Source: a virus. Taken from it: a DNA stretch of 64,000 nucleotides. Positions 37,939-49,909 of the stretch are shown here, one piece after another; positions within the stretch are counted from its first letter, which is position 1, and every line of letters starts with the position of its first letter. Made by a program: the position numbers and the translations under genes. The stretch is from positions 1 to 64,000 of IMG/VR virus record IMGVR_UViG_3300035212_002004. The stretch is one strand, 5' to 3'. The notes beneath the pieces were generated by a model. That model saw nothing but the letters and a program-made list of their open reading frames with translations, did no database searches and was not told the origin of the DNA.

Positions 37939-37940
37939 AA

Positions 37941-38243: not shown

Positions 38244-38266
38244 AACCTTTGTTTTAAATTTATACC

Positions 38267-38298: not shown

Positions 38299-38675
38299 CA
38301 AATTTCAAATCTATTTTTCATTTTATCTAAAGTTTCTTGTGGCACACCGTGTTCATTTATTCCGCCATGCCTGTTCTCCACTATTAGTGAAAATACTTTA
38401 TAACCGTATTTTTCAGCTAATTGGTAATAAGGCTCTAATTCTTTTTCCTGAGTAAATGTGTTTGATACTACTACCTTTTCCGTACTATTTACCATCCAAA
38501 CTTTTACTGCATTCTGACACCAAGCATGAGCTTCCTTTAATTTAGTAGGGTCAAATTTATATTCACCCATATCCATAAAATACTTATCAGCCTCCATATG
38601 TGATCCACCTAATGACTTTGCTAATGTTGTTTTACCTGATCCAGGAACTCCACGAAGGAGAAATAACTCTTTCAT
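38292..38675 (-). CDS. P-loop kinase, polynucleotide-kinase-like, 127 aa
   Basis: MKELFLLRGVPGSGKTTLAKSLGG begins at the Walker A, as in the kinase half of T4 Pnkp and AAA_33 proteins. HMEADKYFM supplies the catalytic acidic residue, VVSNTFTQEKELEPYYQLAEKYGYKVFSL the second-strand region. A 5'-OH RNA/DNA kinase role fits the RNA ligase and cyclic-phosphate enzymes around it. Start at 38675 preferred over an upstream Met inside the previous gene. Confidence 0.82.
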   Translation of the reverse strand: MKELFLLRGVPGSGKTTLAKSLGGSHMEADKYFMDMGEYKFDPTKLKEAHAWCQNAVKVWMVNSTEKVVVSNTFTQEKELEPYYQLAEKYGYKVFSLIVENRHGGINEHGVPQETLDKMKNRFEICL

Positions 38676-38676
38676 A

Positions 38677-38988
38677 TTATTTATTTTTAAATTGTTCAAT
38701 TACAGTATTTTCGTGTTCTCTAAATTCAGTAGCTCTATATCTCATCAAAGTAATTGTTTCTTGAATAGCTTTTCTCATATCTTCTTCACTATACATTCTT
38801 TCTTTTTCTTTTACTTCATCTGATTTAAGTTCATCTTCAAAAGCATAATGCATTTCACCTTCTCCATCAACAACCTCAATAATTTTATGTTCTGTGTATA
38901 GAGGATGTTCTCCTTTTTCATAAACTTTACCTGTTAGTGTTACTGCAATAGGTTGCATCATTGCATAGGGTCTGAATTGATATTTCAT
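38677..38988 (-). CDS. Hypothetical protein, 103 aa
   Basis: MKYQFRPYAMMQPIAVTLTGKVY... then a charged C-terminal helix with RMYSEEDMRKAIQ and ending VIEQFKNK, which is related to the end module of 31900 and 32243. No function known. One base between its start region and the phosphoesterase gene. Confidence 0.55.
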   Translation of the reverse strand: MKYQFRPYAMMQPIAVTLTGKVYEKGEHPLYTEHKIIEVVDGEGEMHYAFEDELKSDEVKEKERMYSEEDMRKAIQETITLMRYRATEFREHENTVIEQFKNK

Positions 38989-38989
38989 A

Positions 38990-39640
38990 TTAAATTCTCT
39001 TTTCGTGATGATCCTTTGGTAAGGCTAATTTTTTAATTGGTTGATCTTTCATTATCATAAGGATCTGTCCTAGTGATAAAGGCTCTAAACCATTTCCATC
39101 TACTCCAACATCCATTGCTTTACCCTCTGCTATTCGTAGGTGTGAAGGTAAATGAACGTGACCATGCAAGTGAATTACTCCTTGGTTCATATCATGCCAT
39201 GATGCGATTGGATAGTGCATACAAATGAAAATATGCTTATCTGTTAACGACTTATTAATTGGCTTTACAACTTCCAATCTCAAGTAGTTTTGTACTGAAG
39301 AGAATAGTTTTTGTACCCCTTCCCTATCTCTTTCGATGTGGTGATCGTGATTACCAAGTACCAAGTGAATGTTTTTACAAAGTATTCTACTTCTGAATTC
39401 TTGTATTCTGTCAAATCCTCCAAATGACCAGTCTCCTAAGTGGATTAAGATATCATCCTCACCAACCATGTTGTTGATGTTGTTGACTAAGGCACTGTTC
39501 ATATGATCAAGTGACTTAAATTCTCTTGTCAAGTTTGAAGCACCTACCCACTTAGTGGTTGCACTGCAGATTGAAGAATGGCAATAGTGAGTATCACTTG
39601 TAAAAAATAATCTTTGTCCTTTTTCTAATACAATTTTCAT
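38990..39640 (-). CDS. Metallophosphoesterase, 216 aa
   Basis: Start set at MKIVLEKGQRLFFTSDTHY, after the promoter at 39659. DxH in SDTHYCH (residue 15), GDxx in ILIHLGDWSFGG (about 79), GNHDHH (about 107), CMHYPIASW (about 153) and HGHVHLPS (about 173) are all present. Phosphodiesterase/phosphatase; in the same operon as the kinase, so it may remove or reshape terminal phosphates during RNA repair. Confidence 0.9.
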   Translation of the reverse strand: MKIVLEKGQRLFFTSDTHYCHSSICSATTKWVGASNLTREFKSLDHMNSALVNNINNMVGEDDILIHLGDWSFGGFDRIQEFRSRILCKNIHLVLGNHDHHIERDREGVQKLFSSVQNYLRLEVVKPINKSLTDKHIFICMHYPIASWHDMNQGVIHLHGHVHLPSHLRIAEGKAMDVGVDGNGLEPLSLGQILMIMKDQPIKKLALPKDHHEKRI

Positions 39641-39658
39641 AACTAATTTATTAATAAT

Positions 39659-39690
39659 TAAATATACGAAATATTTTTTATAAATCCAAA
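39659..39690 (-). promoter_or_regulatory. Class A promoter for the phosphoesterase-kinase operon
   Basis: TTTG, 20 nt, TATATTTA; placed within the 3' end of the mobile endonuclease gene, so it was either carried in or the endonuclease extended over it. Confidence 0.72.
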
Positions 39691-40616
39691 TATTTACTAA
39701 TAATTTTTTCAATATTATTCATCTCAGTATAAGGTATTCTAAGTAGTTGAATATTGTTATTATTACAATATTCATTTTTTATACTATCCTTTAACTGTTG
39801 ATATTCAAAATTATAATCTGATCTTCCGTGTAGCCATTTTATAGGTTCGTAGTGTTGCATTCCGTCAAACTCTATTATTAAATTATATTTGGGTAAATAA
39901 AAATCAAATAATAGTTTGTTCTTGTACTTACAATCCTTGTAAGAATGTTGAGGTATGAATTCTATTTTGTTTGATTCTAAGAAAACTCTTATTTTTGTCT
40001 CCCCTTTTGACTCTTTGCAGCTAGGACATCCCTGTTTACTATCCTTGTGAGCATTTGGAATTTGAAAGAAAGATCCATGTTTTTTACATACTATTTCAAC
40101 TTTAGTTGTATTATTTTTATAGATTACTTTTGAGTAATCATATAAACTTCCATGCACTTTTTTTGCTTCTTTTATAAAAATATCAGCTCCTAAATTAGCT
40201 TTTGCAGCATTTCCTTCATATTGACATTTTCTACATCCTCCTTTTCCACTTAAATGTCTATGAAAGGTTGTATTAATTGTAGTATTGTGTATGTTGCATT
40301 TAATAGTAATTGGAAATGTAATTCCTATATAACTTACTATACCTGAGTAATCGTAATTATCTTTATATCTATCTCTGCATTTCTGTAGAAGCTCTTCTAA
40401 TGTATATTTAAGCTCTTTTCTAGTTTCTACATCGCATTTTAAACATCCATGTCCACCGAAATGATCACTAGGTGTTTGCAACCAACTTCCATGTATTGGG
40501 CAAATAATCTTTACTTTTGTTTGACTATTACTATATTGTACATTTGAATAGTCGTATTTACCTTTATGAATCTCAGTAAATCGTTGAATAACTTCTTGTT
40601 GTGTTAATCTTTTCAT
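39678..40616 (-). CDS. Homing endonuclease, Vsr-like (EDxHD type) with zinc repeats, 312 aa
   Basis: Three repeats of the form KYDYSNVQYSNSQTKVKI-CPIHGSW-Q-P-H--G-GC-KC (DUF723-type zinc repeats) at about 13-60, 75-130 and 145-195. The C-terminal nuclease IPQHSYKDCKYKNKLLFDFYLPKYNLIIEFDGMQHYEPI carries the EFDGxQHY motif of the I-Bth0305I/Vsr-like group. Inserted between a small gene and the phosphoesterase gene, with a structured leader (40617-40720). Confidence 0.88.
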   Translation of the reverse strand: MKRLTQQEVIQRFTEIHKGKYDYSNVQYSNSQTKVKIICPIHGSWLQTPSDHFGGHGCLKCDVETRKELKYTLEELLQKCRDRYKDNYDYSGIVSYIGITFPITIKCNIHNTTINTTFHRHLSGKGGCRKCQYEGNAAKANLGADIFIKEAKKVHGSLYDYSKVIYKNNTTKVEIVCKKHGSFFQIPNAHKDSKQGCPSCKESKGETKIRVFLESNKIEFIPQHSYKDCKYKNKLLFDFYLPKYNLIIEFDGMQHYEPIKWLHGRSDYNFEYQQLKDSIKNEYCNNNNIQLLRIPYTEMNNIEKIISKYLDL

Positions 40617-40720
40617 AATAAAAAAAGCTTAGGCTTTCGAGGTCGGACGCTCTACTTGCCATAAGCTTTAAATTGATGTTTTCGATATAAATATAGGTCC
40701 GACGCTATGCTTATAAATAT
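40617..40720 (-). ncRNA. Pseudoknotted leader RNA of Vsr-like endonuclease gene (copy 2)
   Basis: Same order as copy 1: octamer (40713-40720), GTCGGAC (40697-40703), stem AAAGCTTA/TAAGCTTT (40662-40669 with 40624-40631) plus GGC/GCC, loop with GTCCGAC (40642-40648). Both helices differ in sequence from copy 1 but still pair. Loop blocks GGCAAGTAGA and CCTCGAAAGCC are unchanged. The stem ends 7 nt before the ATG. Confidence 0.75.
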
Positions 40721-40749
40721 CAACTTTTTATGAAAAATACGATTTATTT

Positions 40750-41145
40750 TCATTTTATTAATTTTAATGCTTCTTGTAAACCAACTTCTAATGCTTCTTC
40801 GTAAGTTTTATAATTATTATATTCATCATACCAACCGTTAACATTTTGATTTCCATCAATATCTTTTTGTTGAAGGAATCCCCAACTAGTATAATATTGA
40901 ATACTTTTTCCATCTGATGTTAAGTCATGATATGACTCTACATATAAGTTATGCACTTCTCTTAACCATTTTTGAAGAAATGATTGTGTGCAACAATTAG
41001 CATAAACTTTACAGTATATAGATGCTCCTATACATCCTTCATCATCTCCCTCTAACATATAAGGTAAGTGATTTGTTCTAACATCATCAAAACCTTTCTC
41101 TTTAGCTAACTTAGCTGTTTCAAATGTTATTAATTGTTCTTTCAT
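40750..41145 (-). CDS. Hypothetical protein, 131 aa
   Basis: MKEQLITFETAKLAKEKGFDDV ... NNYKTYEEALEVGLQEALKLIK; paralogous in layout to 43475-43870 (both begin with a xxEQALxLKExGFD-type start and end in E-E-A-x-x-x-x-L-K). It looks like a widespread phage/Bacteroidota protein of unknown function. Six bases from 41151. Confidence 0.6.
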   Translation of the reverse strand: MKEQLITFETAKLAKEKGFDDVRTNHLPYMLEGDDEGCIGASIYCKVYANCCTQSFLQKWLREVHNLYVESYHDLTSDGKSIQYYTSWGFLQQKDIDGNQNVNGWYDEYNNYKTYEEALEVGLQEALKLIK

Positions 41146-41150
41146 AACTT

Positions 41151-41336
41151 TTATTTTTTAAATTTCTTTTCTTTTATTTCAACAAATCCTTCTAATGTAA
41201 GATTTTCTCCTATACATTTCCCTTCTGTGTTATAAAAATAAATTGGAATACCTGTGATGTTTGTTTCTATAAATTGTTGACTCTTTACAAGTTCTCCTGT
41301 ATTTGAATTCTTATAAAATTTATTAACTACTTTCAT
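41151..41336 (-). CDS. Hypothetical protein, 61 aa
   Basis: Small basic beta-rich protein (MKVVNKFYKNSNTGELVKSQQF). First gene behind the class A promoter at 41362; AAAGGTT before its ATG. No family recognised. Confidence 0.55.
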   Translation of the reverse strand: MKVVNKFYKNSNTGELVKSQQFIETNITGIPIYFYNTEGKCIGENLTLEGFVEIKEKKFKK

Positions 41337-41361
41337 AACCTTTTTATTTGTTTCTAATACT

Positions 41362-41393
41362 TAAATATACAAAAAAAGACTTGAATAAACAAG
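41362..41393 (-). promoter_or_regulatory. Class A promoter overlapping a terminator
   Basis: CTTG, 20 nt, TATATTTA (TTTG instead of TTCG just before the box). The CTTG is inside the terminator of the upstream ncRNA. Confidence 0.68.
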
Positions 41394-41397
41394 CCTT
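41376..41397 (-). terminator. Intrinsic terminator at the 3' end of the large ncRNA
   Basis: AAGGCTTG-TTTATT-CAAGTCTT then TTTTT on the minus strand. Fixes the direction of the ncRNA upstream. Confidence 0.78.
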
Positions 41398-41403
41398 TTA
41401 TCA

Positions 41404-41961
41404 ATTATTTTTAAAAAAATTTAACACCTCAGTTGCACTCTGGTTTGTAATGGGGCTACTATGGGAAATCCTGAATTCGTCGTGTTCGTCACAGGCGTAC
41501 TAGTCCTTATCTTCCTTTGAACTTAATCGATTACAATTGGCGAGGTTTACCACTATCAACACGCCTATTCTGTTTCATGTGTTGGTTACAGACAACCATC
41601 GAGGTGTTAAATTTCTATATTATTTTGTTGCTGGGATGTAAAGCATATAGACTATGTCAAATACAAAATCAAAGTCAAAAACCTTCCACTACCACAAGGG
41701 CAAGGACAAAAACTAAGTCTCAGTTTCGCTAGCCACTTTTAATCTCATCCCCCTTTTCAGGGTTCGCACGAGTAACATGTCTAGCTGTTGAGTTCTATCT
41801 CAGTTTTGGTTTAAGTTTGTAGGGAAGCGAGTTTATGGATGGCTCGAGGCCACGGTTATCATGATTGATTAATATATATCGCATATAGTTTGTATGATAA
41901 CTCCACTATCCCAGCATAAAGCTTTGGAGGATCGGCTTGTGCCTACCTCCTTAGCACCAAA
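41404..41961 (-). ncRNA. Large structured non-coding RNA, ~560 nt
   Basis: A 560-nt stretch with no acceptable gene, visibly richer in G+C than its flanks. Four long-range helices are exact: a 14-bp pair (41417-41430 with 41601-41614) closing a 198-nt domain, a 9-bp pair (41629-41637 with 41908-41916) closing a second domain, and inside them 6 bp (41557-41562/41579-41584) and 8 bp (41855-41862/41894-41901). A GGAGG/CCTCC hairpin (41926-41950) begins the RNA. It starts just after the stop at 41962 and ends in a terminator. ROOL and GOLLD RNAs of phages are of this type: large, ornate, near tRNA genes. Identity with either is not shown. Confidence 0.7.
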
Positions 41962-42234
41962 TTATTTTTCTCCTTCTTGGAATATTTTCTCCCAAGCTTG
42001 TTGTGATTCGTAAGGTCTTGCTACGTACTCATTTAACGCTTCCATTCCTTCTTTAATTGTTGTAAATGGAATTTCTTTACATCCTACTGAGATAATACAT
42101 CCAATTGATAGGAATCTAATTTTTACTTCATAATTTGTAAGACATTGTTGTCTTGATGGTTTCCACTGTTCTTCTGCTAATGGTCCATTTTCTACTAGTC
42201 TTGTTGGTGCTGCTACTGGTTCTACTTCGTTCAT
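41962..42234 (-). CDS. Hypothetical protein, 90 aa
   Basis: MNEVEPVAAPTRLVENGPLAEEQWKPSRQQ... Pro-rich start then a beta/alpha domain with two Cys. No family recognised. Last gene before the large ncRNA, which may share its transcript. Confidence 0.55.
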   Translation of the reverse strand: MNEVEPVAAPTRLVENGPLAEEQWKPSRQQCLTNYEVKIRFLSIGCIISVGCKEIPFTTIKEGMEALNEYVARPYESQQAWEKIFQEGEK

Positions 42235-42240
42235 AATAAC

Positions 42241-42549
42241 TTAATTTGATTGTTGATAACTTTGTTGATTTTCTACTTCTTCTATGAATGGTTGATTTTC
42301 CAACTCTTCTATAACTATATTAATTGCATCAGGATAATGAGTGTGTCCAGATTGAAAATATATTCCCACCAAACCTAATACCTCATTGTCAATGTAGTGA
42401 CGATTTTTACCTTTACCGTTTACTATCTCGTGATCCATTGACACATCATCCCATTCATCCAATACAATTCTATTACCACCCTTTTCTCTATAGTGGAGCC
42501 TGATCATATTATTATGACTGAAGTTTTTAATAAACTCTCCTAGCTTCAT
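42241..42549 (-). CDS. Hypothetical protein, 102 aa
   Basis: MKLGEFIKNFSHNNMIRLHYREKGGNRIVLDEWDDVSMDHEIVNG..GLVGIYFQSGHYPDAINIVIEE: looks like a small phage protein with beta strands and a central HYREKGG loop. No function. One base from the 303-aa gene. Confidence 0.55.
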   Translation of the reverse strand: MKLGEFIKNFSHNNMIRLHYREKGGNRIVLDEWDDVSMDHEIVNGKGKNRHYIDNEVLGLVGIYFQSGHTHYPDAINIVIEELENQPFIEEVENQQSYQQSN

Positions 42550-42550
42550 A

Positions 42551-43462
42551 CTATTTTAATTGGTTTAAAAACTCATCTACTACTGATTGAAATCTTTCTG
42601 CTACTTCAATTTTTAAATTAACAGCATCTTGAATTCTTGCTTGACGTTTTTCTTCAAACTCATGTTGAGCGTTACGTTCTTCTCCAGCCCATTTATCGTA
42701 AGCTAGTTTATAAGTATTTGCTGCTTCTGCATTCTCAGTATTTACTCTTGCTTGAATAATTCCTCTTTCTTTCTGAATTCTGGCATTCTCAGAAGTAGTA
42801 GCATTTTTAATCTTAGATTTAAAGTAATTTACTTTTTGTTCATATCCTCTGTGCAGAGCTGCTAATTCTTCATGAATTAAAAGCAACTGTGATGGGGTAT
42901 GATGAATTGAGATTTTCATAGGGGTTTTCTTTCCTACTTCAATTTCCATAAACTCTAAAGTTTTAATGGTAGGAAGTTCTGCTCTTAATCTATCCAATTT
43001 ACCTCCTTTATGAATAAATTGCCCAATATGTGAAGCATAAGCCTCTGCTTCTAAGAATTCGTTGTACTCGGCTGTAGTTAAAGTATTCCAACCAAAATCC
43101 TCATCCACTTCACTTGGAATTGTTTCCGATATAAGTTTTGGTCTCTCTGGGGATTCTACTTCGTATTTGAATCGTTCTTGTTTGATTTTATTAATCAACT
43201 CGTCCTTAGCTTTGATGTTCTCCATCAAGAATGCTTGAGTAGCAGATAATCTTGCTTTAGCAGTTAATAATTCAACTACATTTTCTGGAATTGGGTTTCC
43301 TTTAACTTCAGTATAGGTTTCTTCTCCTATCACTAGTTCTTTAGAAACGTTATTGATATCAGCTAATTGTGCTGTAAGATCTTTTGAACGTTGGTTACAC
43401 AAGTTTGAGATTGATTGTGCTTGAGACATTGATAACCCTTTTGATGCTAACGAATTTTTCAT
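42551..43462 (-). CDS. Coiled-coil phage protein, 303 aa
   Basis: Two helical coiled regions: residues 1-110 (MSQAQSISNLCNQRSKDLTAQLADINNV) and 205-300 (KNATTSENARIQKERGIIQARVNTENAEAANTYKLAYDKWAGEE). The middle is globular. Large for this block of small genes; I do not recognise a named family. Could be a structural or host-takeover protein. Confidence 0.6.
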   Translation of the reverse strand: MKNSLASKGLSMSQAQSISNLCNQRSKDLTAQLADINNVSKELVIGEETYTEVKGNPIPENVVELLTAKARLSATQAFLMENIKAKDELINKIKQERFKYEVESPERPKLISETIPSEVDEDFGWNTLTTAEYNEFLEAEAYASHIGQFIHKGGKLDRLRAELPTIKTLEFMEIEVGKKTPMKISIHHTPSQLLLIHEELAALHRGYEQKVNYFKSKIKNATTSENARIQKERGIIQARVNTENAEAANTYKLAYDKWAGEERNAQHEFEEKRQARIQDAVNLKIEVAERFQSVVDEFLNQLK

Positions 43463-43474
43463 AACTATGATTTT

Positions 43475-43870
43475 TTATTTATTTTTAATGATTTCTATTA
43501 ATTTTTTAAGACATTCAAGTTCTGCTTCTTCGTAAGATTTAAAATCTGTTTCTAATTCAGATATTGATTGAGAATGATTTATTATTTGATAATCACAATT
43601 AACATCATTTTCTAATGAATTGTCTAATCCTATTGAATGATATAAACCATACTTCTCTCTAAACCAACTAAATGCTTGTTGGTATAATGGTGCTGAAACT
43701 ACTATACTTGATGAATTGTGATTAAATAGAATTGGTTTAGGATTAATACAATCACTATTCATTATTGCATAATCACCTAACAATGGGTCAAAATATCCAA
43801 AACAAGGTTCATCAAATCCTAATTCTTTTAAAATTAATGCTTGTTCGTAAGGTGCAAATTCTTTTTCCAT
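43475..43870 (-). CDS. Hypothetical protein, 131 aa (paralogue of 40750-41145)
   Basis: MEKEFAPYEQALILKELGFDEPCFGYFDPL... and a C-terminal DFKSYEEAELECLKKLIEI match the start and end of 40750-41145, which points to a phage multi-copy family of unknown role. First gene behind the class A promoter at 43890-43921. Confidence 0.6.
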   Translation of the reverse strand: MEKEFAPYEQALILKELGFDEPCFGYFDPLLGDYAIMNSDCINPKPILFNHNSSSIVVSAPLYQQAFSWFREKYGLYHSIGLDNSLENDVNCDYQIINHSQSISELETDFKSYEEAELECLKKLIEIIKNK

Positions 43871-43889
43871 AACTATTTTTTCTTATACT

Positions 43890-43921
43890 TTAATATACGA
43901 ACTATATTTCTAATATCCAAC
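43890..43921 (-). promoter_or_regulatory. Class A promoter (GTTG-N20-TATATTAA)
   Basis: GTTG, 20 nt, TATATTAA with TTCG before the box. A 38-nt block around it is repeated almost exactly at 46007-46038. Confidence 0.72.
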
Positions 43922-43927
43922 TTTTTT

Positions 43928-44383
43928 TTAATCTATTTTTAAAGTAAGTATAATATAATCTGCCCATCCCATTTCATGTCCTTCTATATAGAAGTCGTCT
44001 TCTGGAAAGTAATGAGATAAGTCTGTATCCCATAACTGATCATATATTCCTTGCTTAAAGGTATCCATATCTGTTGGATAGATTTTAGGTACCATGCATT
44101 CTAATTTTTCTGAGAGGTATTTTTTAGCAAGTTCATCATTTAGAGTTTTGTAAACTTCAAATGCTTCTTTACTATCGTCATTACCACCATTCCATTTGTA
44201 GGTTTTTAGCAATGCTTGTGATATCTGTTCATGTCTTTGTTTATCTTGTTCAGATATCTCTACAATGGTATGTGTTTTTAGAGCATCTGTAGATAGAGTT
44301 GGGAGAAATCTTCTAGTAATATATTCTCCTACGTAAAGTCCTAGCTGGTAGTTTAAGTCTTTTACATCAGGATCTCTTCTCAT
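43928..44383 (-). CDS. Hypothetical protein, 151 aa
   Basis: MRRDPDVKDLNYQLGLYVGEYITRRFLP... helical, acidic; ends GHEMGWADYIILTLKID. No family recognised. Directly downstream of the tRNA cluster, about 30 nt after the last tRNA. Confidence 0.55.
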   Translation of the reverse strand: MRRDPDVKDLNYQLGLYVGEYITRRFLPTLSTDALKTHTIVEISEQDKQRHEQISQALLKTYKWNGGNDDSKEAFEVYKTLNDELAKKYLSEKLECMVPKIYPTDMDTFKQGIYDQLWDTDLSHYFPEDDFYIEGHEMGWADYIILTLKID

Positions 44384-44413
44384 AACTTTTATTTTTTATT
44401 GGATAAAATATTG

Positions 44414-44485
44414 TGGTCTCGGGGAATTACGATATCCCAGCCTCTTTCTTATGAGGAAATTGCTCTACCTTTGAGCTACGAGACC
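44414..44485 (-). tRNA. tRNA with CAT anticodon (Met type)
   Basis: Acceptor GGTCTCG/CGAGACC, anticodon loop CTCATAA. T-loop reads ATCGTAA: A54-T58 in place of T54-A58, but C56 and the D-loop GG are kept. Confidence 0.8.
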
Positions 44486-44492
44486 AATTAGT

Positions 44493-44561
44493 TGCGGATT
44501 CAGGACTCGAACCTGGCCTCTGGGTTATGAGCCCGGAATGCTACCAATTACACCAAACCGC
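44493..44561 (-). tRNA. tRNA with CAT anticodon (second)
   Basis: Anticodon arm GGG-CTCATAA-CCC, T-arm CCAGGTTCGAGTCCTG. One mismatch in the acceptor. Whether it is initiator, elongator Met or a lysidine-type Ile tRNA is open. Confidence 0.75.
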
Positions 44562-44663
44562 GATGTATGCTTTAATGAAAAGAGGTAAGCTACTTCAGTT
44601 ATCTGCGTTTACTGAGTATTTAAAGCCGTCATTGGCAAAGTGGCTACTTACTTATTCATTTTG

Positions 44664-44734
44664 CGGTCTAGAACGGTAACGCTCCGTCTACTCAACAGTG
44701 ACAGTGTTGGATGATACTTCTTCACTACTAGACC
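44664..44734 (-). tRNA. tRNA-Asp (GTC)
   Basis: Acceptor GGTCTAG/CTAGACC, anticodon arm CAACA-CTGTCAC-TGTTG, discriminator G as in Asp tRNAs. T-arm GACGG-AGCGTTA-CCGTT and D-loop AGAAGTA are non-canonical but match those of Lys and Gln tRNAs below. Confidence 0.75.
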
Positions 44735-44741
44735 TTTTTGG

Positions 44742-44813
44742 TGGAGCTACCGAGATTCGAACTCGGAATAATAGAATGCAAATCTATCGTGATGCCAATT
44801 TCACTATAGCCCC
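44742..44813 (-). tRNA. tRNA-Ala (TGC)
   Basis: Acceptor GGGGCTA/TAGCTCC with G-U pairs, anticodon arm ATAGA-TTTGCAT-TCTAT, canonical T-loop TTCGAAT. Confidence 0.88.
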
Positions 44814-44818
44814 TTTTG

Positions 44819-44890
44819 TAGCCCTGCCGGGAGTCGAACCCGACTTTTATGGATGAAAACCATATGTCCTAACCGATAGACGACAGGGCC
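44819..44890 (-). tRNA. tRNA-Glu (TTC)
   Basis: Acceptor GGCCCTG/CAGGGCT, anticodon arm TATGG-TTTTCAT-CCATA, D-loop with GG, T-loop TTCGACT. Confidence 0.9.
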
Positions 44891-44891
44891 G

Positions 44892-44966
44892 TGGAGCAGA
44901 TGCGGAGAATCGAACTCCGATCTTCTGGTTGGAAGCCAAAAGTAATAACCATTATACGACATCTGC
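44892..44966 (-). tRNA. tRNA-Gly (TCC), CCA encoded
   Basis: Acceptor GCAGATG/CATCTGC, anticodon loop CTTCCAA, T-loop TTCGATT. The gene ends TCCA, so CCA follows the discriminator in the DNA; most others here lack it. Confidence 0.9.
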
Positions 44967-44972
44967 ATTTTG

Positions 44973-45046
44973 AGGTTCTTGTCAGGATCGAACTGACTCT
45001 ATTCAGCGTTACAAATGCTGTGCACCACCACTTATGCGTAAGAACC
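44973..45046 (-). tRNA. tRNA-Thr (TGT)
   Basis: Acceptor GGTTCTT/AAGAACC, anticodon region CAGCA-TTTGTAA-CGCTG, T-arm GTCAGTTCGATCCTGAC. Confidence 0.87.
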
Positions 45047-45052
45047 AAGTAA

Positions 45053-45119
45053 ATTACAGCCGGTTTTCGTATCCGTTCTCCTACTGCCAAGCAGGTGCTT
45101 TGCTATAAGCTAGCTGTAA
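45053..45119 (-). tRNA. Degenerate tRNA-like element
   Basis: Acceptor TTACAGC/GCTGTAA and D-stem GCTT/AAGC are good; anticodon arm CCTGC-TTGG CA-GTAGG leaves a 6-nt loop and the T-arm has only 3 pairs. Anticodon not assigned (GGC possible). Confidence 0.5.
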
Positions 45120-45128
45120 CTTTTTTAT

Positions 45129-45194
45129 GTAGGCGACTAGAACTCCAGTCCTTCTGTCCAATTAAGGAACTCATATCCGGTAACCCGGTCCTAC
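45129..45194 (-). tRNA. Degenerate tRNA-like element
   Basis: Ends GTAGG/CCTAC pair, a CCGG-GTTA-CCGG hairpin sits at the D position, and GACT/AGTC at the T position. Anticodon loop 6 nt (TTAATT). Not assignable. Confidence 0.4.
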
Positions 45195-45206
45195 TATATT
45201 CTACTG

Positions 45207-45286
45207 TACCCAAGGGGGGAGTCGAACCCCCAAGCTTACGCCACGGCTTCTAAGACCGCTGTGTCTACCAGTTCCACCACTCGGGC
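45207..45286 (-). tRNA. tRNA-Leu (TAG)
   Basis: Acceptor GCCCGAG/CTTGGGT, anticodon arm GCGGT-CTTAGAA-GCCGT, long variable arm (GGCGTAAGCTT) expected for Leu, T-loop TTCGACT. Confidence 0.92.
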
Positions 45287-45469
45287 ATTTACCGCATGTG
45301 CGGTCACTTATCAATCGGTAGCTCCCTCTTGATGTCCATCTGTGGGTGTAACACATTTGGTAGAGGGTCGAACCTTAAATATCGTATCATGAAGCATTTT
45401 TGATATTGTTGAATATGCTATATCCAACTTTCTTGCTTTTATGATTATAATTTCTTTATCTTTCATACT

Positions 45470-45501
45470 TAAATATACGAACTATATTTTTACTATCCTA
45501 G
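45470..45501 (-). promoter_or_regulatory. Class A promoter for the 44.4-45.3 kb tRNA block
   Basis: Box TATATTTA with TTCG before it; -33 reads CTAG, so weaker. The 182 nt between it and the first tRNA hold no convincing gene. Confidence 0.55.
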
Positions 45502-45524
45502 CTTTTTTTAATTTACTTTTAATC

Positions 45525-45596
45525 TTAATTGCCATCATTTATTTTAATTCCAAAAAATATAAAGACTACAGCCACAATTATAAAACATACTATCAT
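45525..45596 (-). CDS. Possible membrane microprotein, 23 aa
   Basis: MIVCFIIVAVVFIFFGIKINDGN: one hydrophobic span between the tRNA-Cys gene and the class A promoter. No clear start site. Kept at low confidence because similar one-span peptides occur at 25078 and 32156. Confidence 0.35.
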   Translation of the reverse strand: MIVCFIIVAVVFIFFGIKINDGN

Positions 45597-45610
45597 AATT
45601 TATTTTTTTG

Positions 45611-45683
45611 AGGGACTATAAAGAATCGAACTTTACAATCTATTCGTTTGCTGCGAATAAGCTTAACCATCAGCCTTAGTCCC
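45611..45683 (-). tRNA. tRNA-Cys (GCA) with A33
   Basis: Acceptor GGGACTA/TAGTCCC, anticodon arm ATTCG-CAGCAAA-CGAAT, discriminator T as in Cys tRNAs, T-loop TTCGATT. The universal T before the anticodon is A here. Confidence 0.8.
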
Positions 45684-45688
45684 ATTTA

Positions 45689-45756
45689 TCACCTAGCCTG
45701 ACCTTCCAGACAGTACAAGTCAGTATTAATTTCACGTGCTGTTTTGTAGTAGGTGA
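45689..45756 (-). tRNA. Degenerate tRNA-like element
   Basis: Perfect 7-bp acceptor TCACCTA/TAGGTGA; a central CTGAC-TTGTACT-GTCTG arm would give GTA (Tyr). D and T arms are poor. Confidence 0.4.
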
Positions 45757-45762
45757 TTTATT

Positions 45763-45990
45763 TTATTTATTCAGATCTTGTATAATAGGTCCTAAATCTT
45801 TTACAGGTATCTTACAATCCTCTTGACCTTCTCCTTCTGAGTTTCTCCACATATAGTTGTAAACTGCTTTTGTTTTTCTTTCCATCTCAAATGTAAAGTA
45901 TAGGTTTGGAGTTTCTAATTCATATACATTCCAATCATCTCCTCTTCCGTCAGTATATTGATTTACTAATTTAAAATCTGTTATTTTCAT
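45763..45990 (-). CDS. Hypothetical protein, 75 aa
   Basis: MKITDFKLVNQYTDGRGDDWNVYELETPNLYFTFEMERKTKAVYN: beta-rich small protein. No family recognised. Single gene behind a class A promoter, followed by tRNA genes that it may be co-transcribed with. Confidence 0.55.
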   Translation of the reverse strand: MKITDFKLVNQYTDGRGDDWNVYELETPNLYFTFEMERKTKAVYNYMWRNSEGEGQEDCKIPVKDLGPIIQDLNK

Positions 45991-46006
45991 ATTTCTTTCT
46001 TATACT

Positions 46007-46038
46007 TTAATATACGAACTATATTTCTAATATCCAAC
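46007..46038 (-). promoter_or_regulatory. Class A promoter (GTTG-N20-TATATTAA)
   Basis: GTTG, 20 nt, TATATTAA; the -33 lies inside the 3' end of the HNH gene. Near-identical to 43890-43921. Confidence 0.72.
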
Positions 46039-46725
46039 TATTTTGTTAGATTTTTTTAAATTATCTTTTTTCCACAATGGTTGATAATTACTATAATGAT
46101 TTAATCTTACAATATCTTCCTCTGTTTGAGCTGAAGAGATTGGTATTTTATGATCTAATTCCCATTGACCATAATTGTAAATAGTCATACCTTCTTGAAA
46201 TAAGTTCTGAATATGTTCTGTAAATTCTAATAGAGTGCATCCTAGTATTTCTTCAGTTCCTATACTTTTTCTATAAGTACCATTGCAGCTCCTTTTGAAT
46301 GAACCTCCTATTAAACTTCTTGTATTATATATTAATTTATAAATTGGATCTACTTTTTTTCGTTCCCTATGATAATTTACATAATATCCAGGATTCCTTT
46401 CATTCCAACTACTCTTTTTCTCTCTAGGTTTTTTAATAACCTCTTTTTTAGGTCTAGGATGAGTTTTATAGTACTCTCTTTGCCTTAACTTTATCTCCTC
46501 TTTATTTTGTTGGTAATTTAACCTATCTCTTTCTCTTTGCTTATCCCTATTAGCATCTCTATACTCTTCTCCATATTTTTGTAGAGATTCTTTATTATCC
46601 TCTTTCCATCTTGCAGTTTCTATTTTTCTACAAGCTCTGCAGGTATAGTCGTAGTTATTAAATACAGATTTTGATATGTTAATTCCTACTTCTAATTCTA
46701 CTTTACACTTTATACACTCTTTCAT
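46027..46725 (-). CDS. HNH homing endonuclease with N-terminal zinc ribbon, 232 aa
   Basis: CIKCKVELEVGI...YTCRACRKIE gives two CxxC knuckles; the C-terminal WELDHKIPISSAQTEEDIVRLNHYSNYQPLWKKDNLKKSNK is the HNH core. Paralogue of 35169-35861 and 58853-59524. Inserted in the tRNA archipelago. Preceded by a structured leader at 46726-46832. Confidence 0.9.
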   Translation of the reverse strand: MKECIKCKVELEVGINISKSVFNNYDYTCRACRKIETARWKEDNKESLQKYGEEYRDANRDKQRERDRLNYQQNKEEIKLRQREYYKTHPRPKKEVIKKPREKKSSWNERNPGYYVNYHRERKKVDPIYKLIYNTRSLIGGSFKRSCNGTYRKSIGTEEILGCTLLEFTEHIQNLFQEGMTIYNYGQWELDHKIPISSAQTEEDIVRLNHYSNYQPLWKKDNLKKSNKIVGY

Positions 46726-46832
46726 ATTAAAATAAAAGGAGAAATTAAAGAAAACACATGGTACGTGCTAAGCTCTAAAATCTCCTATAATGTTTTTATT
46801 GAACAGTACCATTGTTCATTTAATATAAATAT
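46726..46832 (-). ncRNA. Pseudoknotted leader RNA of HNH gene (copy 3)
   Basis: Same plan with different sequence: octamer (46825-46832), ATGGTAC (46806-46812), stem AGGAGA/TCTCCT (46781-46786 with 46738-46743), loop holding GTACCAT (46758-46764) that pairs with the first strand, 7 bp. No primary-sequence match to copies 1 and 2 in the loop. Confidence 0.65.
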
Positions 46833-46862
46833 CACAAAATATAGGAAACCTTAATATATTTT

Positions 46863-47369
46863 TTAAAAGAATAGGAAAGCTTCCCATTCCTTAGGTACAT
46901 AGTTTAAGGTTTTTAAGAGCATTAGGTAATGAGGTCTTTTTGGTTCTGGAATTTCCTTTCCATATTCCTCAAGAGTTAAATCTGCTTTAGCTCCATTACA
47001 AGATCTACATGCTGTTACTAAATTGTCCCAAGCATTTTCTCCACCTTTTGATTGTGGAATGACATGGTCAAGTGTTAATGACTTTATGTTACTTGATCCG
47101 CAATAAACACATTCATAATTATCCCTTCGATAAACATTTTCTCTCGTTAGAGGAACTTTTTGAATGTTTTGTTTTACATATTTAAAAACCCTAATGATTG
47201 AAGGTTTAAAAATTTCTAGTTTTGGATTTACTAATCCGAATGTTTCTGGATGTTCAGCTATTATTTCTGCATTACCCTTATACGAAATCACGAAAGCTCT
47301 TTCGGTAGAGATGATGCTTCTTGCCATAAAGCTTGAATCAATTACCAGTGTTCTTTGGTACTTACTCAT
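46863..47369 (-). CDS. HNH endonuclease (McrA-like family), 168 aa
   Basis: Start set at MSKYQRTLVIDSSFMARSI. RRDNYECVYCGSSNIKSLTLDHVIPQSKGGENAWDNLVTACRSCNGAKADLTLEE is a full HNH-zinc-finger domain (CxxC...DH...N...CxxC). The N-terminal half is the companion domain seen in free-standing HNH proteins of cyanobacteria and Bacteroidota (RAFVISYKGNAEII, SIIRVFKYV). It lacks a class B octamer, unlike the other endonuclease genes, so it may be a resident nuclease rather than a recent invader. Confidence 0.88.
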   Translation of the reverse strand: MSKYQRTLVIDSSFMARSIISTERAFVISYKGNAEIIAEHPETFGLVNPKLEIFKPSIIRVFKYVKQNIQKVPLTRENVYRRDNYECVYCGSSNIKSLTLDHVIPQSKGGENAWDNLVTACRSCNGAKADLTLEEYGKEIPEPKRPHYLMLLKTLNYVPKEWEAFLFF

Positions 47370-47402
47370 GATTTTAATTTTTAAATGAAACAATTTATTT
47401 TG

Positions 47403-47473
47403 CGCAGGCCGTAAGAATCGAACTTACCCGTAGCAGTTTTGGAGACCGTACCGACACCTTGTCTGTGACCTGC
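47403..47473 (-). tRNA. tRNA-Trp (CCA)
   Basis: Acceptor GCAGGTC/GGCCTGC, discriminator G as in Trp, anticodon loop CTCCAAA, T-loop TTCGATT. Confidence 0.87.
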
Positions 47474-47567
47474 ATTTGTAGAGTATCGCTTACTCTACCA
47501 AAGTTGATCAGACTTCTTTAATAGCTCTTTAAGTTGTTACCATCTGTCTATCCATGCGATTTTTTTG
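47474..47567 (-). other. Inter-tRNA spacer with hairpin
   Basis: Holds GTAGAGTA-AGCGA-TACTCTAC (8 bp) right before tRNA-Trp, after GATCAACTTTG. The spacer at 47719-47785 has the same plan with GTAGG-type pairs and the same AGCGA loop. Confidence 0.5.
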
Positions 47568-47640
47568 TACCCCTAGAAGAATTCGAATCTCCATTTTACA
47601 TCTTAGAAGGATGTTGCATTTCCATTTATGCTATAAGGGC
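47568..47640 (-). tRNA. tRNA-Arg (TCT)
   Basis: Acceptor GCCCTTA/TAGGGGT, anticodon arm ACATC-CTTCTAA-GATGT, T-loop TTCGAAT. A TACAAAAAAATCG tail follows. Confidence 0.9.
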
Positions 47641-47646
47641 ATTTTG

Positions 47647-47718
47647 AGGTCCTACCAGAACTCGAATCTGGATTCTATCGTTCGTAGCGATAAGTTTTTC
47701 CAATTAAACTATAAGACC
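47647..47718 (-). tRNA. tRNA-Arg (ACG)
   Basis: Acceptor GGTCTTA/TAGGACC, anticodon arm TATCG-CTACGAA-CGATA, T-loop TTCGAGT. Confidence 0.9.
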
Positions 47719-47785
47719 AGACTGTAGGATATCGCTTAACCTACGAAGTTGATCACACTTCTTTTCTATACGAACGATTTTTTTG
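47719..47785 (-). other. Inter-tRNA spacer with hairpin
   Basis: GTAGG-TTA-AGCGA-TATCCTAC hairpin before tRNA-Arg(ACG), preceded by GATCAACTTCG; counterpart of 47474-47567. Confidence 0.5.
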
Positions 47786-47858
47786 TATCCCTGACTGGAG
47801 TCGAACCAGCAGCTTACGAGGCTTAAACTCGTTGTGTTTACCATTTCACCACAGGGAT
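47786..47858 (-). tRNA. tRNA-Leu (TAA), short variable arm
   Basis: Acceptor ATCCCTG/CAGGGAT, anticodon arm ACGAG-TTTAAGC-CTCGT, T-loop TTCGACT. The variable region is only about 5 nt, odd for a Leu tRNA. Confidence 0.85.
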
Positions 47859-47953
47859 GTAAAGCCAATCCCGTAGATTGGCAGCTCAACTTTAGGCATT
47901 GAGTTTGCAAGAACTAGTCTCTGGCCAAGTCAATCTCCCTTTGGGAGTTGTCG

Positions 47954-48025
47954 TGTGAAAGGTGGGACTCGAACCCACAATCTCCTGAATCACAATCAGA
48001 CGCTTTACCATTCAGCTACAATCAC
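47954..48025 (-). tRNA. tRNA-His (GTG)
   Basis: Anticodon arm CTGA-TTGTGAT-TCAG, T-arm TGTGGGTTCGAGTCCCAC. Two T-T mismatches in the acceptor GTGATTG/CTTTCAC. Confidence 0.8.
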
Positions 48026-48033
48026 CATGTTAG

Positions 48034-48102
48034 TACCGAGTGTTGGATTCGAACCAACCTAAGGGCGGATATGAGCCATCCTTGATCCCAAGCTCCCTCG
48101 GT
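48034..48102 (-). tRNA. tRNA with CAT anticodon (third)
   Basis: Acceptor ACCGAGG/ACTCGGT, anticodon arm GATGG-CTCATAT-CCGCC with one A-C mismatch, T-loop TTCGAAT. Met or Ile2 type. Confidence 0.72.
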
Positions 48103-48108
48103 AATTAA

Positions 48109-48171
48109 AAGTAACGTAGGACTCGAACCTACTCATGCCAAGTTAATAGCAATTATCCACCATGCATTACT
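48109..48171 (-). tRNA. Short tRNA-like element
   Basis: Acceptor AGTAATG/CGTTACT and T-arm GTAGGTTCGAGTCCTAC are good, but the unit is only 63 nt and the anticodon arm cannot be fixed (loop 6 or 8 nt). Confidence 0.55.
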
Positions 48172-48175
48172 TTTG

Positions 48176-48258
48176 AGGAAAGAATGAGAATCGAACTCAA
48201 TCCAATTACGAACGTCTCGCTTAGCAGGCGGACTCAACACCATGTTGATTTACTTTCC
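48176..48258 (-). tRNA. tRNA-Ser (GCT)
   Basis: 83 nt with a long variable arm. Anticodon loop CTGCTAA, acceptor GGAAAGT/TCTTTCC with one mismatch, T-loop TTCGATT. Confidence 0.88.
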
Positions 48259-48264
48259 ATTTTG

Positions 48265-48336
48265 TACTCCTAGGAAGAATTGAACTTCCATTTCATCCTT
48301 ATCAGAGATGTGTGCTAACCATTCTACTATAGGAGC
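48265..48336 (-). tRNA. tRNA-Ile (GAT)
   Basis: Acceptor GCTCCTA/TAGGAGT, anticodon arm CATCT-CTGATAA-GGATG, T-loop TTCAATT. Confidence 0.9.
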
Positions 48337-48458
48337 AATTTGTAACGTTTAATCTGATAACCTTACGAAGAGTTGTTCCTTATTAATCCAATTGTAATGT
48401 TAGTTGTTGGAGGGAAAGTTACACATCTAAACCCGTCAGGAGATACTAACACCCCTTG
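48337..48458 (-). other. Inter-tRNA spacer, 122 nt
   Basis: Contains GAACAACTCTTCGTAAGG, related to the GATCAACTTCG blocks of the other spacers, and no ORF. No firm feature seen. Confidence 0.35.
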
Positions 48459-48530
48459 CTCCTCCCCTAGGACTCGAACCTAGATAAGATGATTAACAGT
48501 CATCCGTAATAACCTTTATACGAGAGAGGA
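48459..48530 (-). tRNA. tRNA-Asn (GTT)
   Basis: Acceptor TCCTCTC/GGGAGGA, anticodon arm GATGA-CTGTTAA-TCATC, T-loop TTCGAGT, discriminator G. Confidence 0.9.
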
Positions 48531-48536
48531 ATTTTG

Positions 48537-48612
48537 AGCCACATAACAGGAATCGAACCTGTCTGCTGAATCTTGTCAAATACTCTCATCTTGTCGACCT
48601 TTCAGAGGCATA
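48537..48612 (-). tRNA. tRNA-like element with a lone good T-arm
   Basis: T-arm ACAGGTTCGATTCCTGT is canonical, followed by TATGTGGC. No matching 5' acceptor strand found within 100 nt, so this may be a tRNA remnant; a TTTGACAA loop hints at Val. Confidence 0.45.
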
Positions 48613-48652
48613 TTCTATTTAACCCTTTATGATCTTCCACCCTACGTCTAGG

Positions 48653-48706
48653 ACAGTCCATACATAATTGACTAAAAGATCCAGTCGTCACCGTTGACTA
48701 TGGACT
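48653..48706 (-). other. Armless tRNA-like fold
   Basis: AGTCCATA and TATGGACT (8 bp) enclose GTCA-ACGG-TGAC at the D position and GACTG-GATCTTT-TAGTC at the anticodon position, with no T-arm, about 54 nt in all. The loop would read TCT. Confidence 0.35.
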
Positions 48707-48712
48707 TGTTTG

Positions 48713-48785
48713 TGGACCCTGTAGGAATCGAACCTACTCCTCTAGTTCTTCAGACTAGCGTACGCACCAGCTATACCAAAGGTCC
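48713..48785 (-). tRNA. tRNA-Phe (GAA)
   Basis: Acceptor GGACCTT/AGGGTCC, anticodon arm CTAGT-CTGAAGA-ACTAG, T-loop TTCGATT. Confidence 0.9.
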
Positions 48786-48798
48786 AAGGTTAATAAAG

Positions 48799-48869
48799 TG
48801 GGGCCAGTAGGAATCGAACCTACCCAGTGAGCTTTTACAGAGCTGCTCGGCACCTTGCCTGTTGTCCCC
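48799..48869 (-). tRNA. tRNA-Tyr (GTA)
   Basis: Anticodon arm AGCT-CTGTAAA-AGCT, acceptor GGGGACA/TGGCCCC with one mismatch, T-loop TTCGATT. Variable arm short, unlike bacterial Tyr tRNAs. Confidence 0.85.
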
Positions 48870-48915
48870 AATTACACTTTCCAATTAAATCTGTATAAGT
48901 GTGAAACCCTCTTCG

Positions 48916-48986
48916 TACCTCGTAGTGGAATCGAACCACTGCCATTTCCATGTAAAAGAAATACGCTTCCATTACGCCAACGAGGC
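48916..48986 (-). tRNA. tRNA-Val (TAC)
   Basis: Acceptor GCCTCGT/ACGAGGT, anticodon arm TTTCT-TTTACAT-GGAAA, T-loop TTCGATT. Confidence 0.88.
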
Positions 48987-49033
48987 AAATGCACTTCCTG
49001 TTCTCTACGGTATAGTATAGTGCTAACCATTTG

Positions 49034-49104
49034 TACCCCCTGAAGGTAATGCTCCTTCTTCCCGATATTAAAAGTATCGTGCTTCACTTTAAAGCCTAGA
49101 GGGC
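49034..49104 (-). tRNA. tRNA-Lys (TTT), variant elbow
   Basis: Anticodon arm CGATA-CTTTTAA-TATCG. T-arm GAAGG-AGCATTA-CCTTC and D-loop TAAAGTG share the variant seen in Asp and Gln tRNAs. Confidence 0.82.
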
Positions 49105-49166
49105 AAATTTAATTCTATGCGTCGGTGCTTATTAGGCGGTGATCTATGAATTAGTAACAGTCTCTC

Positions 49167-49239
49167 GTCTAATAGTTAGGATTCGAACCTAAGTACTGCT
49201 CAGTCCAAGTGAGCCATGAAACCGTGCTTCGCTACTAGA
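49167..49239 (-). tRNA. tRNA-Pro (TGG)
   Basis: Acceptor TCTAGTA/TATTAGA, anticodon arm GCTCA-CTTGGAC-TGAGC, T-loop TTCGAAT. Confidence 0.87.
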
Positions 49240-49249
49240 AATTTATTTG

Positions 49250-49320
49250 TTGCCCATGAAGGTAACGCTCCTTCTCCGCATGTGTCAAAGACATGTGTAC
49301 TACTTTTATACGAACGGGCA
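49250..49320 (-). tRNA. tRNA-Gln (TTG), variant elbow
   Basis: Acceptor TGCCCGT/ATGGGCA, anticodon arm CATGT-CTTTGAC-ACATG. T-arm GAAGG-AGCGTTA-CCTTC, D-loop AAAAGTA. Confidence 0.82.
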
Positions 49321-49325
49321 CAATG

Positions 49326-49766
49326 CTATTTTAAATTATGTTTTATTTTTAATCTATGGACTCTATTGTAATTATCACCTTTTGGAGATAAACCAGCATC
49401 TCTTAATATGTCAGCTATACTTCCTCCTTTTTTTATAGATTCAATTAATACATCTTCATGCACCCATTTAGTATGGGTTTCTTTTTTATAGTTTTTAGAT
49501 CTAAAAGTTGATGTTTGTGAATGACAATTAGGACACATATATCTTAAATTCCCTCTAGTATTATTATGTTTATCACCATCTATATGGTCTAATTCTAATA
49601 AAAGAGGTTTTTCATTCCATTCTTCTAATATTCCACATTCTACACATTTAGGTTCTCCTAACCATTTATCTTTTTTTAACCAGTCTCTAAAAGCAGGAAC
49701 AAATGTTATTGTCATTTCCCCATTTAATATTTTTTCAATATTATTTTTAATATCAGTACGTTTCAT
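49326..49766 (-). CDS. HNH homing endonuclease, 146 aa
   Basis: Start set at MKRTDIKNNIEKI; the longer frame would run through the tRNA-Ser gene. CVECGILEEWNEKPLLLELDHIDGDKHNNTRGNLRYMCPNCHSQTSTF is an HNH core with zinc knuckles (CxxC, DHIDG, N, CPNCH). The basic C-terminal part resembles a small HTH (GGSIADILRDAGLSPKGDNY). Sits inside the tRNA archipelago with a class B octamer 15 nt upstream. Confidence 0.92.
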   Translation of the reverse strand: MKRTDIKNNIEKILNGEMTITFVPAFRDWLKKDKWLGEPKCVECGILEEWNEKPLLLELDHIDGDKHNNTRGNLRYMCPNCHSQTSTFRSKNYKKETHTKWVHEDVLIESIKKGGSIADILRDAGLSPKGDNYNRVHRLKIKHNLK

Positions 49767-49781
49767 ATAATATATTTGATA

Positions 49782-49789
49782 ATAAATAT
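49782..49789 (-). promoter_or_regulatory. Class B octamer ATATTTAT before HNH gene
   Basis: TAATATTTATTATC, 15 nt before the ATG at 49766. Confidence 0.5.
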
Positions 49790-49825
49790 TACATCGTCTT
49801 AAAGACTTAAACATACTTTTAATAG

Positions 49826-49909
49826 AAGAGAGTGTGGGACTCGAACCCACAACGGTTTAACCCGCTACGACTTTTCAAGAGTCGCTCTTGATCCAGCCAG
49901 ATACTCTCC
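49826..49909 (-). tRNA. tRNA-Ser (TGA)
   Basis: 84 nt with a long variable arm (GTAGCGGGTTAAACCG). Acceptor GGAGAGT/ACTCTCT, anticodon arm CGACT-CTTGAAA-AGTCG, T-loop TTCGAGT. Confidence 0.9.

What the first reader, a model, noticed from the sequence alone, without database searches (positions are those of the whole stretch)
41404..41961. Large structured phage RNA, candidate ROOL/GOLLD-like or a new class
A 560-nt gene-free stretch with higher G+C than its flanks contains exact long-range helices of 14 and 9 bp closing two adjacent domains, plus inner helices of 6 and 8 bp. It begins right after a stop codon with a strong hairpin and ends in an intrinsic terminator, and a tRNA archipelago starts 2.4 kb away. 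Phage ROOL and GOLLD RNAs share size range, complexity and tRNA association. The sequence was not compared with either, so it could be a new class.
Basis: partly seen in the sequence, partly recalled or inferred. Interest (0 to 1): 0.88.

Follow-up and report, generated by a model that had tools for sequence, protein, structure and literature searches.

The report
New structured phage RNA–protein pair
A family of large bacterial viruses carries a previously undescribed, intricately folded RNA of about 330 bases that is always encoded right behind the same uncharacterised protein gene, in a genome island of tRNA and RNA-repair genes, which suggests that the two work together as a new RNA–protein machine.

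Summary
The stretch is real and structured, but it is read from the minus strand and holds two RNAs. D1 (41626-41959, ~334 nt) occurs in at least 118 distinct sequences (73 clusters at 90% identity) from large phage contigs. Its nine helices show compensatory change at 39 of 42 pairs; 93.9% of cells are paired, against 37-53% when partners are slid. It matches no Rfam family, so it is neither ROOL nor GOLLD. D1 always follows a ~303-aa protein of unknown family: in every intact locus, in searches started from either side, and the two are present or absent together in large phages. Short ORFs are inserted exactly between them in several lineages. The pair sits among tRNAs and RNA ligase, kinase and phosphoesterase genes. 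Two lineages have a Ro60 (TROVE) gene next to it, and a close relative lacking the pair has Ro60 plus Y-RNA-like elements in the same slot. Best reading: a new ribonucleoprotein of the phage RNA-repair island, working like Ro60-Y RNA without being one. D2 (41417-41614, ~200 nt) is a second, independent structured RNA from related tRNA islands. That D1 is a conserved structured RNA is close to certain; the RNP mechanism is inferred.

The parts
41626..41959 (-). D1 RNA, the conserved structured RNA, from closing pairs P0 at the 5' side (41959-41958) to the 3' side (41627-41626); starts 2 nt after the stop codon of the preceding ORF
   Evidence: nhmmer/cmsearch homologues in at least 118 distinct sequences; covariation
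41921..41955 (-). P1, 5' hairpin of D1 (CUAAGGAGGU...AUCCUCCAAAG) with inner 2-bp stem GC/GC closing loop ACAA; the outermost pair is 41955-41921
   Evidence: 10 pairs with compensatory change, 8 in the outer stem and 2 in the inner stem
41901..41916 (-). 5' strand of closing helix P2 (GCUGGGAU) and its extension (GUGGAG) in D1
   Evidence: 14 of 14 pairs with changes on both sides, pairing with 41629-41643
41629..41643 (-). 3' strand of closing helix P2 and its extension in D1
41819..41827 (-). 5' strand of long-range helix P3 of D1 (CUUCCCUAC)
   Evidence: 9-11 bp with 41683-41692 in all 34 sequences tested despite different sequence and 1-nt length changes
41683..41692 (-). 3' strand of P3 (GUAGUGGAAG)
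41789..41802 (-). P4 hairpin of D1 (UGAG-AUAGAA-CUCA), conserved loop
   Evidence: alignments A1/A3; UAGG/CCUA in L042; modest covariation
41728..41785 (-). P5 stem (GCUAGAC.../...GUGGCUAGC) with variable inner hairpin
   Evidence: several of the strongest covarying pairs
41695..41724 (-). First hexanucleotide array (NNUUUG), near-invariant G every 6 nt
41652..41682 (-). Second hexanucleotide array (NNUUUG), G every 6 nt, followed by invariant CUA
41417..41614 (-). D2 RNA, second independent structured RNA, closed by the 14-bp helix 41601-41614 / 41417-41430
   Evidence: homologues in 6 other phage contig groups; closing helix changed on both sides in L084 and L293
41569..41592 (-). Pseudoknot of D2: hairpin loop UCUGU (41588-41592) with ACAGA (41569-41573)
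   Evidence: UCUGU/ACAGA, UCUAU/AUAGA and CCUAU/AUAGG in different homologues
41374..41399 (-). Intrinsic terminator of the minus-strand transcript
   Evidence: the same terminator region follows D1 directly in many homologues
42551..43462 (-). 303-aa protein gene invariably linked to D1; no known family
42241..42549 (-). Small gene (102 aa) inserted between the 303-aa gene and D1
41962..42234 (-). Small gene (90 aa) inserted between the 303-aa gene and D1; its UAA stop abuts D1
   Evidence: homologue precedes D2 in L084
35932..39712 (-). RNA-repair-type genes downstream: RNA ligase (35932-37080), AAA_33 kinase-like (38292-38699), metallophosphoesterase (38990-39712)
44413..49909 (-). tRNA array (18 tRNAs) upstream

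Best explanation
D1 is a new class of conserved structured RNA, made as the 3' end of the transcript that carries the ~303-aa gene. It folds by a closing helix (P2), a long-range helix (P3), two hairpins and a stem (P5) into a compact body that displays two single-stranded NNUUUG hexamer arrays. It most likely forms a ribonucleoprotein with the 303-aa protein, which acts in the tRNA/RNA-repair island of these phages, as a scaffold or substrate gate for RNA processing, repair or decay enzymes during infection. This is the way Ro60-Y RNA complexes work, without D1 being a Y RNA. Shown: structure, conservation, strict linkage to the 303-aa gene, co-presence and co-absence, island context, Ro60 beside the pair or in its slot. 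Inferred: transcription, binding of the protein, and the role in RNA repair or quality control.
For: Covariation: 39 of 42 pairs changed on both sides, 93.9% paired against 37-53% when slid; every pair significant in a phylogeny-aware test lies in the model, none outside. Linkage: starting from the protein, every locus with downstream sequence has D1; starting from the RNA by DNA pattern, every hit has the gene unless the contig ends. Co-occurrence in large contigs: 6 with both, 12 with neither, 0 discordant, including a 173-kb contig with an 89% identical helicase. One copy per genome. The pair is the only fixed unit in an otherwise variable island, even where 1-3 small genes are inserted exactly between gene and RNA. 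RNA ligase, kinase and phosphoesterase lie nearby. A TROVE/Ro60 gene directly follows D1 in 430-kb phages and precedes the 303-aa gene in an independent lineage; in the relative without the pair, Ro60 with Y-RNA-like elements fills the same syntenic slot. Cellular Ro60 and Y RNAs are encoded with the RNA ligase RtcB (PMC7790460), and TROVE is described as an RNA-repair RNP platform in some jumbo phages (PMC7824862).
Against: No transcript or binding data. The 303-aa protein is slightly acidic (pI 5.5-6.6) and has no recognisable RNA-binding fold. D1 also fits a cis-acting 3'-UTR element of the same operon. Ro60 is adjacent in only two lineages, and those loci have weak YrlA-like hits of their own, so D1 is not needed as their Y RNA. 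The island is generally variable, so a shared slot may reflect a hotspot or differential loss.
Confidence: 0.5

Rival explanations
1. D1 is a cis-acting 3'-UTR element that controls stability or expression of the 303-aa gene's mRNA (autoregulation), not a free RNA.
For: D1 begins 2 nt after the stop codon of the preceding ORF and often ends at an intrinsic terminator; linkage to the gene is absolute.
Against: In several lineages 1-3 other genes are inserted between the 303-aa gene and D1, and D1 then abuts their stop codons. Size and complexity exceed typical 3'-UTR regulators (own knowledge).
Confidence: 0.22
2. D1 is a trans-acting RNA independent of the 303-aa protein (RNA-only assembly, sponge or host-directed RNA, in the manner of ROOL/GOLLD or T4 RNAC/RNAD), merely encoded beside it.
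For: Phage RNAs of unknown function in tRNA islands are known and some form RNA-only cages (PMC12286853); T4 has RNAC and RNAD of unknown function (PMC9697503). D2 shows that such RNAs can sit in these islands without the 303-aa gene.
Against: Absolute linkage and co-absence of D1 with one protein are not expected for an RNA acting alone.
Confidence: 0.2
3. D1 is a divergent Y RNA that binds Ro60.
For: Ro60 genes lie 25 nt behind D1 in one phage group, before the pair in another, and in the slot of the pair in a third.
Against: Most D1 phages searched, including this one, have no TROVE gene. No YrlA match to D1 or its surroundings, and no tRNA-like domain found. The Ro60 loci carry their own weak YrlA-like elements.
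Confidence: 0.05
4. The conserved sequence reflects a hidden short protein-coding gene.
For: Hexamer periodicity (2 x 3) and short open runs in the arrays.
Against: 7-9 stops per frame on average, no shared start or frame, 1-nt indels compensated by pairing in P3, covariation across the whole length.
Confidence: 0.02

Closest known systems
GOLLD RNA
   Same: Structured RNA of phages and prophages, often near tRNA islands, function unknown (PMC12286853)
   Different: Over 800 nt for many members; no sequence or structure match. D1 is ~330 nt and tied to a protein gene
ROOL RNA
   Same: Phage-borne, complex, near tRNA islands, function unknown (PMC12286853)
   Different: Larger (own knowledge: ~580 nt), no Rfam match; no protein partner identified for ROOL, whereas D1 has an invariant neighbouring gene
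Ro60 (Rsr)-Y RNA ribonucleoprotein, rsr-yrlBA-rtcBA operons
   Same: Protein gene and noncoding RNA side by side with RNA-repair genes (PMC7790460); in these phages Ro60 sits next to D1 or in its slot
   Different: The 303-aa protein has no TROVE match; D1 has no tRNA-like or YrlA match and is about three times the length of the Rfam YrlA model (114 positions)
T4 RNAC and RNAD
   Same: Noncoding RNAs of unknown function in a large phage (PMC9697503)
   Different: No sequence comparison made here; small RNAs, with no linked protein known to me

Membership tests
GOLLD | Match to the GOLLD covariance model | tested here: not met
   No Rfam match at gathering or at E up to 5; none in homologues. 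That Rfam holds GOLLD and ROOL models is stated in PMC12286853
GOLLD | Length, many members over 800 nt | tested here: not met
   289-388 nt in 118 sequences
ROOL | Match to the ROOL covariance model | tested here: not met
ROOL / GOLLD | Location near phage tRNA islands | tested here: met
ROOL / GOLLD | RNA-only homo-oligomeric cage | not testable with these tools
   needs cryo-EM
Y RNA (YrlA) | Match to Rfam YrlA or presence of a tRNA-like domain | tested here: not met
   No YrlA match at E up to 1 in window 35800-50500 and no tRNA in D1
Y RNA (YrlA) | Encoded with a Ro60/TROVE protein | tested here: inconclusive
   Ro60 adjacent in two lineages, absent from this genome and most others searched
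Y RNA (YrlA) | Binding by Ro60 | not testable with these tools
   needs a binding assay
tmRNA | tRNA-like domain and tag reading frame found by ARAGORN, or Rfam match | tested here: not met
RNase P RNA, group I intron | Match to the Rfam models | tested here: not met
T4 RNAC/RNAD | Sequence or structure homology | not tested
   T4 sequences were not compared directly

The most novel reading that the evidence does not exclude
D1 and the 303-aa protein form a new kind of ribonucleoprotein, unrelated in sequence or predicted fold to Ro60-Y RNA but occupying the same niche in phage RNA-repair islands. The protein, or a partner, would bind along the 11-unit NNUUUG array with a 6-nt repeat.
Probability: 0.35. 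Interest if true: 0.92.

Novelty: categorically new. Interest (0 to 1): 0.8.

Why it matters
New large structured RNA classes with this much covariation are rare, and phage RNAs of this type such as ROOL lack any protein partner to start from. Here an invariant partner gene, a clean absence/presence pattern, and a genomic slot shared with Ro60-Y RNA give direct, testable handles on what such RNAs do for phages that carry their own tRNAs and RNA ligases. The structure model and the linked gene can be used to annotate many uncultivated large phages.

Tried and rejected
ROOL/GOLLD, tmRNA, RNase P, group I intron: no Rfam or ARAGORN match. Plus-strand RNA: rejected by gene and terminator orientation and by linkage. 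One 560-nt RNA: rejected, since D1 and D2 occur separately. Short peptide on either strand: rejected by stops and compensated indels. D2 hits in isolate contigs by the exact 20-mer (L083, L085 and others): not supported by the D2 profile, treated as chance or unrelated. Conserved promoter directly upstream of D1: none seen, because the upstream sequence codes for different proteins in different loci. Synonymous-site conservation at the 3' end of the 303-aa gene: not clearly raised. Internal duplication of the 303-aa protein: in register but not significant. Foldseek of its model: no PDB match, one uncultured phage homologue. A search of whole genomes at RNA level was limited to the phylum of one MAG; a protein-level scan of 84,980 genomes found one contig.

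Full report
What is there. The 560-nt stretch lies among minus-strand genes and is followed on the minus strand by a terminator-like hairpin at 41399-41374. Read on minus it begins 2 nt after the UAA of the 90-aa ORF 41962-42234. Folding the single sequence is not decisive. No Rfam family matches.

Homologues. The neighbouring 303-aa protein (42551-43462) fetched 80 viral loci. The first ~340 nt of the minus-strand sequence (D1) recur in 77 of them, directly downstream of that gene; the other three loci end at the contig end. In total there are 118 distinct full-length sequences in 73 clusters at 90% identity, 289-388 nt long. The RNA is single copy in the window's 168-kb record and in the other large records tested, up to 434 kb.

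Structure. RNAalifold finds compensatory changes at 33 of 39 pairs. For a 42-pair model, 93.9% of cells are paired, 39 pairs have changes on both sides and the covariation score is 0.598, against 0.247 in shuffles (0 of 500) and 0.11-0.18 when partners are slid. A test with substitutions simulated on the tree gave 9 pairs at E<0.05 with 58 sequences and 6 with 118; every one is in the model. This test is my own implementation in the spirit of R-scape. Helices: P0 closing pairs; P1, a 5' hairpin whose outer and inner stems both covary; P2, a long-range closing helix with an extension; P3, a long-range helix of 9-11 bp in all 34 sequences tested, in which a 1-nt length change is absorbed by a bulge, an A-A mismatch or an extra pair; P4, a hairpin with a conserved AUAGAA loop in most members; P5. 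The 3' strand of P3 is flanked by two arrays of NNUUUG with G at every sixth position.

Not coding. All six frames average 7-9 stops, with one sequence having at most one stop in a single frame. The compensated single-base indels in P3 exclude a conserved frame through the region.

Partner gene. The 303-aa family has no match in Pfam, PHROGs, NCBIfam, PADLOC or PDB sequences beyond weak noise. Its AlphaFold model is good (pLDDT 86.7) but resembles no solved structure; the one viral hit is an uncultured-phage homologue. It has no match in 50,697 phage and 72,556 plasmid records and was found in one of 84,980 GTDB genomes, in a contig binned with a MAG whose phylum has ~1-Mb genomes. In 22 diverse loci the gene is the only conserved neighbour of D1. 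In several lineages one to three small genes are inserted exactly between its stop codon and D1, and D1 then abuts the stop codon of the inserted gene. Among large records searched for both, six have both and twelve have neither, including the isolate Flavobacterium phage immuto and a 173-kb contig whose helicase is 89% identical to this phage's. Some negative records are fragments, so the strongest cases are those above 100 kb.

Island and Ro60. Downstream of D1 the window has a metallophosphoesterase, an AAA_33 kinase-like protein and an RNA ligase; upstream is the tRNA array. At least one of these three families lies within 6 kb in 12 of 22 loci (my count). The 173-kb relative without the pair is syntenic on both sides; in the same slot it has a TROVE (Ro60) protein, E 9e-14, preceded by elements with a weak YrlA match. 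In two 430-kb phages the Ro60 gene starts about 25 nt after D1; in another lineage a Ro60 only 39% identical lies just before the 303-aa gene. These loci also have weak YrlA-like hits, while this window has none at E up to 1. In 28 records searched, TROVE occurred only next to D1 or in its slot. Ro60-Y RNA is known to be encoded with RtcB RNA ligase (PMC7790460), and TROVE proteins were noted in some jumbo phages as RNA-repair platforms (PMC7824862). A shared slot can mean functional substitution, or an ancestral block of pair plus Ro60 from which each lineage lost one part; both readings keep the RNA-repair context.

D2. The 3' part (41417-41614) is a separate RNA. Its 14-bp closing helix is replaced by other complementary sequences in L084 and L293, and a loop pseudoknot changes in concert (UCUGU/ACAGA, UCUAU/AUAGA, CCUAU/AUAGG). 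It occurs in six other phage contig groups, mostly within tRNA arrays, and in a 282-kb record with no D1. Its function is unknown; with seven sequences the evidence is good but thinner than for D1.

Judgement. That D1 is a real, conserved, structured, minus-strand RNA element of a new class is near certain (about 0.97). That it forms an RNP with the 303-aa protein acting in RNA repair or quality control is the best-supported mechanism, but inferred (about 0.5). It is filed under no known family. 'Categorically new' refers to the RNA class and its protein family, both unmatched in every library searched; the broader kind, phage RNAs near tRNA islands, is known.

Noticed in passing
41417-41614 (minus): D2, a second structured RNA (~200 nt) with a covarying closing helix and pseudoknot, found mostly in tRNA arrays of six other phage contig groups, no Rfam match.
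   Followed up: partly
L379:12829-14406 and 12200-12720: Close relative of this phage carries a Ro60/TROVE gene with several repeated Y-RNA-like and tRNA-like elements in the slot occupied here by the 303-aa gene and D1.
   Followed up: yes
L041:7333-8913; L145:857-2350: Ro60/TROVE genes directly beside the D1 pair in two independent lineages of phages.
   Followed up: yes
41652-41724 (minus): Two arrays of NNUUUG hexamers with near-invariant G every 6 nt (11 repeats in all) flanking the 3' strand of P3; unexplained.
   Followed up: partly
41962-42549 (minus): Small genes inserted exactly between the 303-aa stop codon and the RNA, differing between lineages; the 90-aa family also precedes D2 in L084.
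   Followed up: partly
41350-41420 (minus): The ~70-nt terminator region after D1/D2 recurs at several places in related phages.
   Followed up: no
L212: The D1 pair also occurs in a contig binned with a MAG from a phylum of ~1-Mb genomes; its D1 lacks most of P5. Either a misbinned phage or a phage of such a host.
   Followed up: partly
14673-16310 (minus): Phage-encoded GroEL-type chaperonin (Cpn60_TCP1).
   Followed up: no
46863-47393, 46027-46725, 35169-35861, 58853-59524: HNH-type endonuclease (46863-47393) and further HNH-like ORFs (by sequence motif only); one lies between the ribonucleotide reductase genes.
   Followed up: no
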